A program made the translations under genes and the position numbers. The notes below the pieces were generated by a model. That model was not told where the DNA came from. It did no database searches and saw only the letters and a list, made by a program, of their open reading frames with translations. 64,000 nt of DNA, taken from assembly GCA_946699065.1 (NCBI GenBank), contig CAMPDV010000886.1, forward strand, positions 98,744 to 162,743, written 5' to 3'. Positions 1 through 64,000 of this stretch are shown here, in pieces (position 1 is the stretch's first letter; every line of letters begins with the position of its first letter). This DNA comes from Loxodes magnus (taxonomy: Eukaryota > Ciliophora > Karyorelictea > Loxodida > Loxodidae).

Positions 1-1283
1 GACGGTGAGACTATGGGACGTCAAGACAGGTACCTGTAAGACCATGAGTGGTCACACAGATTGAGTATATGCTGTGGCTATATCCAGTGATTCAGAGTTC
101 ATCGTATCGGGAAGTTTAGATAAGACGGTGAGACTATGGGACGTCAAGACAGGTACCTGTAAGACCATGAGTGGTCACACAGATTGAGTATATGCTGTGG
201 CTATATCCAGTGATTCAGAGTTCATCGTATAGGGAAGTTTAGATAAGACGGTGAGACTATGGGACGTCAAGACAGGTACCTGTAAGACCATGAGTGGTCA
301 CACTTATTCTGTATCATCTGTGAATATATCCAGTGATTCAGAGTTCATCGTATCGGGAAGTTTAGATAAGACGGTGAGACTATGGGACGTCAAGACAGGT
401 ACCTGTAAGACCATGAGTGGTCCTAAAAGTTCTTTATTATCTGTGGATATATCCAGTTATACAGAGTTCATCGTATCGGGAAGTAGAGATAAGACGGTGA
501 GACTATGGGACGTCAAGACAGGTACCTGTAAGACCATGAGTGGTCACACAGGATCTGTATTATCTGTGGATATATCCAGTGATTCAGAGTTCATCGTATC
601 GGGAAGTTGAGATAAGACGGTGAGACTATGGGACGTCAAGACAGGTACCTGTAAGACCATGAGTGGTCATAAAAGTTCTGTATTATCTGTGGATATATCC
701 AGTTATACAGAGTTCATCGTATCGGGAAGTAGAGATAAGACGGTGAGACTATGGGACGTCAAGACAGGTACCTGTAAGACCATGAGTTGTCGCACAGGTT
801 CTGTATTATCTGTGGCTATATCCAGTGATTCAGAGTTCATCGTATCGGGAAGTCATGATAAGACGGTGAGACTATGGGACGTCAAGACAGGTACCTGTAA
901 GACCATGAGTGGTCACACTAGTTAGGTATATGCTGTGGCTATATCCAGTGATTCAGAGTTCATCGTATCGGGAAGTTGAGATAAGACGGTGAGACTATGG
1001 GACGTCAAGACAGGTACCTGTAAGACCATGAGTGGTCACACAGATTGAGTATATGCTGTGGCAATATCCAGTGATTCAGAGTTCATCGTATCGGGAAGTG
1101 ATGATAAGACGGTGAGACTATGGGACGTCAAGACAGGTACCTGTAAGACCATGAGTGGTCATAAAAGTTCTGTATTATCTGTGGCTATATCCAGTGATTC
1201 AGAGTTCATCGTATCGGGAAGTTTAGATAAGACGGTGAGACTATGGGACGTCAAGACAGGTACCTGTAAGACCATGAGTTGTC

Positions 1284-1296
1284 GCACAGTTCTGTA
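1284..1296 (+). other. -1 frameshift in a CRTG-type monomer
   Basis: The usual reading CGC ACA GGT TCT loses one G, giving cgcacagttctg. The WD40 frame moves by one base here: the blade before it ends in another frame from the run that continues to 1,908. A similar deletion occurs at about 2,272 in a monomer of the same class. Confidence 0.9.
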
Positions 1297-1908
1297 TTAT
1301 CTGTGGATATATCCAGTGATTCAGAGTTCATCGTATCGGGAAGTCATGATAAGACGGTGAGACTATGGGACGTCAAGACAGGTACCTGTAAGACCATGAG
1401 TGGTCATAAAAGTTCTGTATTATCTGTGGCTATATCCAGTGATTCAGAGTTCATCGTATCGGGAAGTTTAGATAAGACGGTGAGACTATGGGACGTCAAG
1501 ACAGGTACCTGTAAGACCATGAGTGGTCACACAGGATCTGTATTATCTGTGGATATATCCAGTTATTCAGAGTTCATCGTATCGGGAAGTAGAGATAAGA
1601 CGGTGAGACTATGGGACGTCAAGACAGGTACCTGTAAGACCATGAGTGGTCATAAAAGTTCTGTATTATCTGTGGCTATATCCAGTGATTCAGAGTTCAT
1701 CGTATCGGGAAGTTTAGATAAGACGGTGAGACTATGGGACGTCAAGACAGGTACCTGTAAGACCATGAGTGGTCACAATAGTTCTGTATCATCTGTGGCT
1801 ATATCCAGTGATTCAGAGTTCATCGTATCGGGAAGTGATGATAAGACGGTGAGACTATGGGACGTCAAGACAGGTACCTGTAAGACCATGAGTGGTCACA
1901 CAGATTGA
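1291..1908 (+). pseudogene. Open WD40 segment, five blades
   Basis: Entered from the -1 frameshift, the frame stays open through an H-ending blade, then HKSS-L, HTGS-SYS-R, HKSS-L and HNSS-D blades, and closes at the TGA after HTD. HNSS (cacaatagttct) is a rare variant also seen near 2,513, 3,990 and 6,940. There is no start codon in context. It is a fragment of the array rather than a separate gene. Confidence 0.6.
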
Positions 1909-2265
1909 GTATATGCTGTGGCTATATCCAGTGATTCAGAGTTCATCGTATCGGGAAGTTGAGATAAGACGGTGAGACTATGGGACGTCAAGACAGGTAC
2001 CTGTAAGACCATGAGTGGTCATAAAAGTTCTGTATTATCTGTGGCTATATCCAGTGATTCAGAGTTCATCGTATCGGGAAGTTTAGATAAGACGGTGAGA
2101 CTATGGGACGTCAAGACAGGTACCTGTAAGACCATGAGTGGTCACACAGATTGAGTATATGCTGTGGCTATATCCAGTGATTCAGAGTTCATCGTATAGG
2201 GAAGTTTAGATAAGACGGTGAGACTATGGGACGTCAAGACAGGTACCTGTAAGACCATGAGTTGT

Positions 2266-2279
2266 CGCACAGTTTTGTA
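2266..2279 (+). other. -1 frameshift in a second CRTG-type monomer
   Basis: The monomer reads cgcacagttttgta: one G is lost as at 1,288, and there is an extra C-to-T change. The following codons also differ from the 1,288 copy (SVA then TGA, against SVD then His). The frame shifts once more and stays in the new register up to about 16,670. Confidence 0.9.
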
Positions 2280-3446
2280 TTATCTGTGGCTATATCCAGT
2301 GATTCAGAGTTCATCGTATCGGGAAGTTGAGATAAGACGGTGAGACTATGGGACGTCAAGACAGGTACCTGTAAGACCATGAGTGGTCATAAAAGTTCTG
2401 TATTATCTGTGGCTATATCCAGTGATTCAGAGTTCATCGTATCGGGAAGTTTAGATAAGACGGTGAGACTATGGGACGTCAAGACAGGTACCTGTAAGAC
2501 CATGAGTGGTCACAATAGTTCTGTATCATCTGTGGCTATATCCAGTGATTCAGAGTTCATCGTATCGGGAAGTGATGATAAGACGGTGAGACTATGGGAC
2601 GTCAAGACAGGTACCTGTAAGACCATGAGTGGTCACACAGATTGAGTATATGCTGTGGCTATATCCAGTGATTCAGAGTTCATCGTATCGGGAAGTGATG
2701 ATAAGACGGTGAGACTATGGGACGTCAAGACAGGTACCTGTAAGACCATGAGTGGTCACACAGATTGAGTATATGCTGTGGCTATATCCAGTGATTCAGA
2801 GTTCATCGTATCGGGAAGTTGAGATAAGACGGTGAGACTATGGGACGTCAAGACAGGTACCTGTAAGACCATGAGTTGTCACACAGATTGAGTATATGCT
2901 GTGGCTATATCCAGTGATTCAGAGTTCATCGTATCGGGAAGTTGAGATAAGACGGTGAGACTATGGGACGTCAAGACAGGTACCTGTAAGACCATGAGTT
3001 GTCACACAGATTGAGTATATGCTGTGGCTATATCCAGTGATTCAGAGTTCATCGTATCGGGAAGTTTAGATAAGACGGTGAGACTATGGGACGTCAAGAC
3101 AGGTACCTGTAAGACCATGAGTGGTCATAAAAGTTCTGTATTATCTGTGGCTATATCCAGTGATTCAGAGTTCATCGTATCGGGAAGTTTAGATAAGACG
3201 GTGAGACTATGGGACGTCAAGACAGGTACCTGTAAGACCATGAGTGGTCACACAGATTGAGTATATGCTGTGGCTATATCCAGTGATTCAGAGTTCATCG
3301 TATCGGGAAGTTGAGATAAGACGGTGAGACTATGGGACGTCAAGACAGGTACCTGTAAGACCATGAGTGGTCACACAGATTGAGTATATGCTGTGGCTAT
3401 ATCCAGTGATTCAGAGTTCATCGTATCGGGAAGTTGAGATAAGACG

Positions 3447-62685: not shown

Positions 62686-62763
62686 GATAAGACGGTGAGA
62701 CTATGGGACGTCAAGACAGGTACCTGTAAGACCATGAGTTGTCACACAGATTGAGTATATGAT

Positions 62764-63369
62764 GTGGCTATATCCAGTGATTCAGAGTTCATCGTATCGG
62801 AAAGTTTAGATAAGACGGTGAGACTATGGGACGTCAAGACAGGTACCTGTAAGACCATGAGTGGTCACACAGGATCTGTATTATCTGTGGATATATCCAG
62901 TTATTCAGAGTTCATCGTATCGGGAAGTAGAGATAAGACGGTGAGACTATGGGACGTCAAGACAGGTACCTGTAAGACCATGAGTGGTCACACAGATTGA
63001 GTATATGCTGTGGCTATATCCAGTGATTCAGAGTTCATCGTATCGGAAAGTTTAGATAAGACGGTGAGACTATGGGACGTCAAGACAGGTACCTGTAAGA
63101 CCATGAGTGGTCATAAAAGTTCAGTATTATCTGTGGCTATATCCAGTGATTCAGAGTTCATCGTATCGGGAAGTAGAGATAAGACGGTGAGACTATGGGA
63201 CGTCAAGACAGGTACCTGTAAGACCATGAGTGGTCATAAAAGTTCTGTATTATCTGTGGCTATATCCAGTGATTCAGAGTTCATCGTATCGGGAAGTAGA
63301 GATAAGACGGTGAGACTATGGGACGTCAAGACAGGTACCTGTAAGACCATGAGTGGTCACACTAGTTAG
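62764..63369 (+). pseudogene. Last open runs of the window, with SES alleles
   Basis: Runs 62,764-63,000 and 63,010-63,369 each begin in a VAIS remainder with SES (tcggaaagt) in place of SGS. This alters the conserved Gly next to a tetrad serine. A third SES copy follows at about 63,413. The second run closes at HTS-TAG. Confidence 0.6.
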
Positions 63370-63684
63370 GTATATGCTGTGGCTATATCCAGTGATTCAG
63401 AGTTCATCGTATCGGAAAGTTTAGATAAGACGGTGAGACTATGGGACGTCAAGACAGGTACCTGTAAGACCATGAGTGGTCACACAGATTGAGTATATGC
63501 TGTGGCTATATCCAGTGATTCAGAGTTCATCGTATCGGGAAGTTGAGATAAGACGGTGAGACTATGGGACGTCAAGACAGGTACCTGTAAGACCATGAGT
63601 GGTCACACAGATTGAGTATATGCAGTGGCTATATCCAGTGATTCAGAGTTCATCGTATCGGGAAGTGATGATAAGACGGTGAGA

Positions 63685-63895
63685 CTATGAGACGTCAAGA
63701 CAGGTACCTGTAAGACCATGAGTGGTCACACAGATTGAGTATATGCTGTGGCTATATCCAGTGATTCAGAGTTCATCGTATCGGGAAGTTGAGATAAGAC
63801 GGTGAGACTATGAGACGTCAAGACAGGTACCTGTAAGACCATGAGTGGTCACACCAGATTGAGTATATGCTGTGGCTATATCCAGTGATTTCAGA
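63685..63895 (+). other. Lesion cluster near the window end
   Basis: In about 200 bp there are two TGA codons in place of TGG in LWD (63,688-63,690 and 63,811-63,813), one inserted C in the HTD codons (cacaccagattg, about 63,855) and one inserted T (gatttcag, about 63,891). All nearby monomers are also HTD-TGA types. This density of lesions is higher than in the neighbouring array. Confidence 0.88.
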
Positions 63896-64000
63896 GTTCA
63901 TCGTATCGGGAAGTTGAGATAAGACGGTGAGACTATGGGACGTCAAGACAGGTACCTGTAAGACCATGAGTGGTCACACAGATTGAGTATATGATGTGGA

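What the first reader, a model, noticed from the sequence alone, without database searches (positions are those of the whole stretch)
1..64000. At least 520 consecutive WD40 blades with no other sequence
A 64-kb block made only of 123-bp WD40-coding monomers is far beyond a normal WD40 gene (about seven blades). Anchor spacing corrected for indels equals exactly 520 x 123 bp. The unit has satellite-like behaviour yet preserves a clear protein fold, so it sits between a coding repeat and a satellite.
Basis: seen in the sequence. Interest (0 to 1): 0.75.

Follow-up and report, generated by a model that had tools for sequence, protein, structure and literature searches.

The report
WD40-blade satellite in a ciliate genome
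In this ciliate a unit that encodes one blade of a recognition-type protein has been copied into enormous satellite-DNA arrays, and the copies still differ mainly at the spots where such proteins touch their partners.

Summary
The window is the right-hand 64 kb of a 162,743-bp contig made entirely of 1,324 WD40-blade units of about 123 bp. The genome fits the Loxodes magnus somatic assembly in size and code. A 20-mer of the unit occurs 380,931 times: a major satellite, about 47 Mb.

The in-frame stops are not decay. In this code TAA/TAG are Gln and TGA is Trp or stop; 1,102 of 1,133 such codons in 2,208 units lie in five hypervariable codons. The four codons homologous to those under positive selection in Podospora HNWD rank 1, 3, 4 and 5 of 41 in diversity in the pooled units. 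Seven window blades fold as a propeller (pLDDT 90).

Yet backbone changes look neutral (24 synonymous, 64 not), and a frame-breaking variant spread to about 54 units: not one giant protein.

Best reading: a satellite grown from already diversified blades of a large gene family (RING-like finger, pentapeptide, WD40 propeller) that tends to face outward near contig ends. Whether arrays feed blades back into genes is open.

The parts
1..64000 (+). Tandem array of 521 WD40-blade units of about 123 bp; part of a 1,324-unit array that fills contig C886
2337..16604 (+). 116 consecutive units without a frame change, open under table 27 (TAA/TAG = Gln, TGA = Trp)
   Evidence: worked out from the unit list
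45226..63798 (+). 151 consecutive units without a frame change, open under table 27; the longest such run on C886
   Evidence: worked out from the unit list
16727..17805 (+). Stretch with odd-length units (156, 84, 113 and 112 bp), also split off by TRF
35029..35843 (+). Stretch with shortened units (111, 111, 112, 120, 119, 119 bp)
45069..45225 (+). 157-bp unit with a 34-bp insertion, where TRF breaks the array
2..862 (+). Seven consecutive blades (287 aa under table 27) that AlphaFold2 folds as a seven-bladed propeller
   Evidence: mean pLDDT 90.1, pTM 0.89, 28 strands; Pfam WD40 in the longer reading P0003

Best explanation
The window is satellite DNA whose monomer is one WD40 blade. It arose from the near-identical middle blades of a large family of genes (RING-like zinc finger, Gln-rich middle, pentapeptide stretch, WD40 propeller) in a karyorelict ciliate that fits Loxodes magnus. 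In those genes the blade backbone is kept nearly identical while the codons on the propeller's contact face were diversified, as in fungal HNWD receptors. Blades carrying many contact-face variants were then amplified into arrays of 100 kb and more. Once in an array the units mutate neutrally and may lose the frame, so the array of this window is not translated as one giant protein. Shown here: length, copy number, contact-face diversity, neutral backbone, spread of a frame-breaking variant, near-identity to some gene blades. Inferred: direction (gene to satellite), amplification by unequal crossing-over or a similar process, and any present movement of blades between arrays and genes.
For: Scale: 380,931 exact 20-mers, 46.9 Mb at one per 123 bp, 6.6% of the assembly. 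Contact-face diversity: codons 38, 19, 22, 20, 40 (counted from 0) lead the entropy table in the pool of 2,078 units, and only 4 of 101,270 sets of four codons match or beat the set homologous to Podospora codons 7, 9, 25, 27. Near absence of synonymous variety at codon 38: Trp TGA 277 of 277, Leu TTA 277 of 277, Arg AGA 370 of 370. Recoded stops sit at contact codons, 1,102 of 1,133. Neutral backbone: 24 synonymous to 64 nonsynonymous alleles, share 0.27 against 0.24-0.28 expected. Frame not guarded on C886: 73 of 1,324 units change frame, 54 units of 121 bp; a motif of that variant occurs 63 times in the genome, 54 of them on C886. Local homogenisation: cline along C886. Gene link: in the C411 gene four consecutive units match the backbone at 81, 93, 92 and 83 of 93 sites, and gene-blade contact half-types recur in arrays for 6 of 8 and 5 of 7.
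Against: Stretches read on C4650, C171, C351 and C304 have 0 frame-breaking units in 81, 81, 82 and 162, and C3579 0 in 52, so some arrays may still be read or be younger. In the window alone the contact-codon signal is weaker: ranks 5, 3, 1 and 21, with 295 of 101,270 sets as good. Complete contact combinations of gene blades recur for only 1 of 7. Direction gene-to-satellite is not proven; genes could have taken blades from the satellite. Only one gene was read in full.
Confidence: 0.7

Rival explanations
1. Silent donor library: the arrays are used as a store of blade cassettes that recombine into the WD40 genes and renew their contact faces.
For: Arrays and some gene blades share an almost identical backbone while full-length gene heads have only 49-66% reported identity, Gln as TAA/TAG counted as mismatch. 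Contact half-types are shared and shuffled: 329 combinations from 70 x 43 half-types, 69 of them on two or more contigs; gene half-types recur 6 of 8 and 5 of 7.
Against: No transfer was observed; complete combinations recur 1 of 7; the array backbone shows no sign of selection; sharing also follows from simple descent.
Confidence: 0.2
2. Giant translated gene or genes: the array is a single coding region for hundreds of blades.
For: Frame-intact runs of 116 and 151 units in this window and arrays with no frame break in the stretch read; fold-competent blades; TGA can be sense far from the transcript end.
Against: 73 of 1,324 units on C886 change the frame; neutral backbone; the one array edge read begins inside a unit and shows no significant match to the gene head.
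Confidence: 0.06
3. Assembly expansion of a much shorter repeat.
For: The authors think that misassembly of low-complexity repeats likely explains the difference between their germline and somatic assembly sizes; the identity threshold in assembly was relatively low, 96%.
Against: No exact self-repeat of 3 kb or more, 1.1% of positions in exact repeats of 2 kb, 402 distinct units of 1,324; near-smooth cline; different allele sets on nine other contigs. The genome-wide copy number may still be off in either direction.
Confidence: 0.05
4. Decayed pseudogene array with random stops under the standard code.
For: 286 of 521 window units hold a standard stop codon.
Against: 1,102 of 1,133 such codons in 2,208 units lie in five contact-face codons; actin genes of this genome hold TAA and TAG inside; table 27 is published for Loxodes.
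Confidence: 0.02

Closest known systems
Podospora anserina HNWD/NWD receptors with high-internal-conservation WD40 repeats (PMC1805685, PMC2873952, PMC12222747; passages read)
   Same: Near-identical blades; diversity at the same four positions (7, 9, 25, 27 there; 20, 22, 38, 40 here, offset 13); exchange of units between genes reported there, shared backbone between genes and arrays seen here.
   Different: There about 70 units in ten NACHT-WD genes, with HET domain in the hnwd members; here at least 380,931 copies of the 20-mer, long arrays, a RING-like/pentapeptide gene head and a recoded genetic code.
Classical satellite DNA
   Same: Head-to-tail arrays over 100 kb, hundreds of thousands of copies, local homogenisation, neutral backbone.
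   Different: The monomer encodes a complete protein blade and carries the diversity of a recognition surface.
Young LRR genes of Tetrahymena built from nearly 50,000 exons of exactly 90 bp (PMC6564038; passages read)
   Same: Ciliate; mass amplification of one repeat-protein unit; concentration of young copies in subtelomeric and pericentromeric regions.
   Different: Those units are exons separated by introns inside genes; here uninterrupted arrays without introns and another fold.
Highly repetitive WD40 proteins such as PDB 2ymu (PMC5587647, passages)
   Same: Best match in the Protein Data Bank (E 1.5e-124); near-identical consecutive blades.
   Different: 14 blades forming two propellers in one bacterial protein; no satellite.

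Membership tests
WD40 beta-propeller blade | Profile match and four-stranded blade fold | tested here: met
   Pfam WD40 E 2.6e-106 over ten stretches; seven-bladed model, pLDDT 90.1, both under table 27
Satellite DNA | Long head-to-tail arrays, high copy number | tested here: met
   1,324 units on C886; 380,931 20-mers in the genome
Satellite DNA | Evolution without protein constraint | tested here: met
   24 synonymous to 64 nonsynonymous backbone alleles; frame-breaking variant spread on C886. Several other stretches show no frame break
Satellite DNA | Heterochromatic state, no protein product | not testable with these tools
   no expression or chromatin data
HNWD/NWD receptors | High internal identity of WD40 units | tested here: met
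   mean identity to the unit 0.907-0.952 in 13 stretches
HNWD/NWD receptors | Hypervariability at the four positively selected codons | tested here: met
   ranks 1, 3, 4, 5 of 41 in the pool; in the window alone 1, 3, 5, 21
HNWD/NWD receptors | Formal test of positive selection | not tested
   only entropy and heterozygosity were used
HNWD/NWD receptors | N-terminal NACHT, with or without HET | tested here: not met
   Pfam on the head of the one complete gene gives pentapeptide and sub-threshold RING matches, no NACHT or HET
HNWD/NWD receptors | Concerted evolution between gene copies | tested here: inconclusive
   near-identical blade backbones with divergent gene heads, but few gene blades could be read
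HNWD/NWD receptors | Non-self recognition function | not testable with these tools
   needs genetics
Giant WD40 gene | Frame open from end to end | tested here: not met
   73 of 1,324 units change the frame on C886

The most novel reading that the evidence does not exclude
The satellite is a genome-scale archive of receptor blades: hundreds of thousands of already diversified WD40 cassettes, kept exchangeable by an almost invariant backbone, from which WD40 genes near the contig ends draw new contact faces by recombination. It would be an HNWD-like diversification system scaled up several thousand-fold and housed in satellite DNA.
Probability: 0.2. Interest if true: 0.93.

Novelty: new variant of a known kind. 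Interest (0 to 1): 0.75.

Why it matters
Satellites are usually thought of as sequence without protein meaning. Here about one fifteenth of a somatic genome assembly is one protein blade, and the arrays carry the fingerprint of diversified recognition surfaces. It is a second, unrelated case of the Podospora pattern at the same four positions, it shows how a recoded genetic code can make a protein-derived satellite look full of stops, and it offers a natural system in which exchange between satellite DNA and genes can be measured.

Tried and rejected
Decayed pseudogene array: rejected, because 1,102 of 1,133 'stop' codons lie in five contact-face codons and actin genes of this genome hold TAA/TAG inside.

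Loss of Arg CGA to TGA by deamination at codon 38: considered when a TRF consensus in L010 showed CGA there; dropped because CGA is found in 0 of 2,208 units at this codon.

Gene head running into a giant array: suspected because gene heads lie near contig ends. Probes at four of these genes (C10, C8, C14, C26) show blades next to the gene and another satellite or other sequence 2-9 kb further out, so these four do not run into giant arrays. The one array edge read (C1359) gave no significant match to the gene head; that check compared with three proteins joined in one file, and the significant hits fall in the blade part, one of them with a weak 28% in-frame extension upstream.

Organism by 18S rRNA: the Rfam search failed twice. 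Identity rests on assembly size (705,730,643 bp against 706 Mbp published) and code, not on a name.

Formal tests of positive selection and a blade tree were not made, because exchange between units violates their assumptions.

Rows left out: (codon table; heterozygosity) and 82, units with any indel and end units were dropped, leaving 2,077 or 2,078 of 2,208. The label 'other10contigs' is a slip: it is 13 stretches on nine contigs.
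Full report
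OBSERVATION. The window is one uninterrupted tandem array. Tandem Repeats Finder gives period 123 from 1 to 45150 and from 45171 to 63992. A wrap-around alignment cuts the window into 521 units, 503 with no net length change. The window is bases 98744-162743 of contig C886 (162,743 bp) in a genome of 705,730,643 bases in 7,843 contigs. I fetched the remaining 98.7 kb: all of it is the same array on the same strand. C886 holds 1,324 units, 402 of them distinct; neither array end is on the contig. The 20-mer GGGACGTCAAGACAGGTACC occurs 380,931 times in the genome, 173,433 forward and 207,498 reverse, with 0 for the backwards control. At one per 123 bp this is 46.9 Mb, 6.6% of the assembly; in the window the 20-mer is found 488 times in 521 units, so it undercounts slightly.

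ORGANISM AND CODE. The tool does not name the genome. Its size equals the published 706 Mbp of the somatic assembly of Loxodes magnus, which has 231 Mbp of tandem repeats (PMC11441545: sections 8, 11, 25, 26 and passages seen). The best actin matches carry 7 TAG and 2-3 TAA inside. Karyorelicts use table 27: TAA and TAG are Gln, and TGA, the only stop, is Trp if far enough upstream of the poly-A tail. I therefore read the array with that code. Under the standard code 286 of 521 window units hold a stop and no stop-to-stop frame exceeds 327 aa.

THE BLADE. Under table 27 the unit reads [41 protein letters not shown]. Pfam WD40 matches the first 615 codons at E 2.6e-106 over ten stretches; the frame is lost after about eleven units there. 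Seven consecutive blades from window 2-862 were folded from the single sequence: best model mean pLDDT 90.1, pTM 0.89, 28 strands; the five models had mean pLDDT 90.1, 87.4, 87.0, 84.6 and 47.7.

WHERE IT VARIES. I pooled units without indels from C886 and from 13 stretches on nine other contigs (2,077 or 2,078 of 2,208 units). By amino-acid entropy codons 38, 19, 22, 20 and 40 (counted from 0) lead with 3.18, 2.33, 2.19, 1.86 and 1.70 bits; the next has 0.99. By the published rule for WD40 contact residues (PMC3419727, passages) I assign codons 20 and 22 to R1-2 and R1 and codon 38 to D-1. In Podospora's HNWD repeats the codons under strong positive selection are 7, 9, 25 and 27 (PMC1805685, PMC2873952, passages); with an offset of 13 these are 20, 22, 38 and 40. 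Only 4 of 101,270 sets of four codons have an entropy sum as high. On the nine other contigs the figure is also 4, on the left part of C886 it is 15, and in the window alone it is 295, with ranks 5, 3, 1 and 21: there codon 40 is nearly fixed and codons 25 and 18 vary instead. Of 1,133 codons that the standard code would call stops in 2,208 units, 1,102 sit in codons 19, 20, 22, 38 and 40: they are Trp and Gln choices at contact positions. At codon 38 Trp is TGA 277 of 277 times, Leu TTA 277 of 277, Arg AGA 370 of 370. On the nine other contigs mean nonsynonymous heterozygosity is 0.745 in the five codons and 0.031 in 29 backbone codons, synonymous 0.003 and 0.011; on C886 nonsynonymous 0.595 and 0.020, synonymous 0.042 and 0.018.

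WHAT HAPPENS INSIDE ARRAYS. Single-base alleles in the 29 backbone codons are 24 synonymous and 64 nonsynonymous; the share of 0.27 equals that of random mutation, 0.24-0.28 depending on transition bias. So I see no guard on the protein backbone now; leftover assembly errors would look neutral too. On C886 73 of 1,324 units change the frame, and 54 units are 121 bp long. A motif of this variant occurs 63 times in the genome: 54 on C886, 3 on C879, 6 on C3609, so it spread locally. Against this picture, the stretches read on C4650, C171, C351, C304 and C3579 have 0 frame-breaking units in 81, 81, 82, 162 and 52; other stretches have 1 to 13. Along C886 the share of AAA at codon 7 falls almost steadily from 0.94 to 0, as expected for local exchange in a real array. 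Shuffling between the two contact halves is visible on C886 (79 combinations of 16 x 13 half-types, 338 of 784 four-gamete tests complete) and much less elsewhere, for example 7 of 784 on C4650. Very diverse contact codons beside a nearly clean backbone are hard to explain by mutation within arrays: the diversity was probably there when the arrays grew, or was brought in (inference).

SOURCE GENES. On C411 (L025 3703-5910, minus strand) an open reading of 736 codons runs from a RING-like zinc finger (zf-RING_2 E 0.0073, below cut-off) through a Gln-rich middle and a pentapeptide stretch (E 1e-8, above cut-off) to seven WD40 blades. In unit register four consecutive units match the array backbone at 81, 93, 92 and 83 of 93 sites; the others at about half to two thirds. 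The 427-aa head finds 120 matches; 98 of 3,397 first-look candidates were scored, so the family is large, but 3,397 is no gene count because the query is Gln-rich. Full-length hits other than itself have 49-66% reported identity, with Gln as TAA/TAG counted as mismatch (self-hit 86%). A pattern for the first-blade junction occurs 296 times. The 100 listed fall into 84 loci. Of 39 within 60 kb of a contig's left end 35 are on the minus strand; of 37 at position 200 kb or more 32 are on the plus strand (Fisher p 1e-11). So these genes tend to face outward near contig ends; for most contigs I do not know the length, so the right-hand side is judged by position only. Contact half-types of gene blades recur in arrays for 6 of 8 and 5 of 7, complete combinations for 1 of 7.

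MECHANISM. Shown: an amplified, locally homogenised satellite with a neutral-looking backbone and contact-face diversity, sharing its backbone with blades of a gene family. Inferred: origin from the middle blades of such genes, whose near-identical neighbouring units invite unequal crossing-over, and the process of amplification. Not shown: that arrays return blades to genes; I put this donor-library reading at 0.2. The one array edge that I could read (C1359, L027 at about 2691) begins inside a unit next to AT-rich sequence; the 427-aa head gives no significant match there, best E about 1.2.

NOVELTY AND LITERATURE. The main text of the assembly paper does not contain 'WD40'. A search for Loxodes with WD40 found 0 papers; the searches for satellite, tandem-array and minisatellite terms with WD40, for WD40 with subtelomeric and ciliate, and for satellites from coding genes listed nothing of this kind in the rows that I saw (listings). 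The library lacks most subscription papers and supplements were not open to me, so the unit may stand in the assembly paper's repeat tables. The works-like relative is the Podospora system; membership fails on the gene head. The nearest ciliate parallel that I met is the amplification of 90-bp LRR exons in Tetrahymena (PMC6564038, passages).

LIMITS.

Noticed in passing
L039, L040, L047, L048, L057, L058 (contigs C10, C14, C108, near base 1) and G000:C3:2277920-2301383: A purine-rich satellite of roughly 88 bp lies beyond the outward-facing WD40 genes at several contig ends; a 33-mer of it has 173,604 exact copies. Related or other short satellites end C32, C8, C79 and C26. The assembly paper says Loxodes telomeres eluded detection, so these are candidates for chromosome-end sequence.
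   Followed up: partly
G000, C266, C437, C524, C707, C711 and others: Near-identical actin genes in dozens of copies, often several per contig and about 15-60 kb apart (96 matches).
   Followed up: no
G000:C2:232467-233996 and similar places: A second group of gene heads, 39-50% reported identity in the first part, matches in two pieces with a gap of about 200 bases or more, perhaps an intron or an insertion.
   Followed up: no
L027 5000-10000 (C1359): The array changes to units that share fewer 13-mers with the window (about 0.55 against 0.8 before), so subfamilies of the satellite exist.
   Followed up: no
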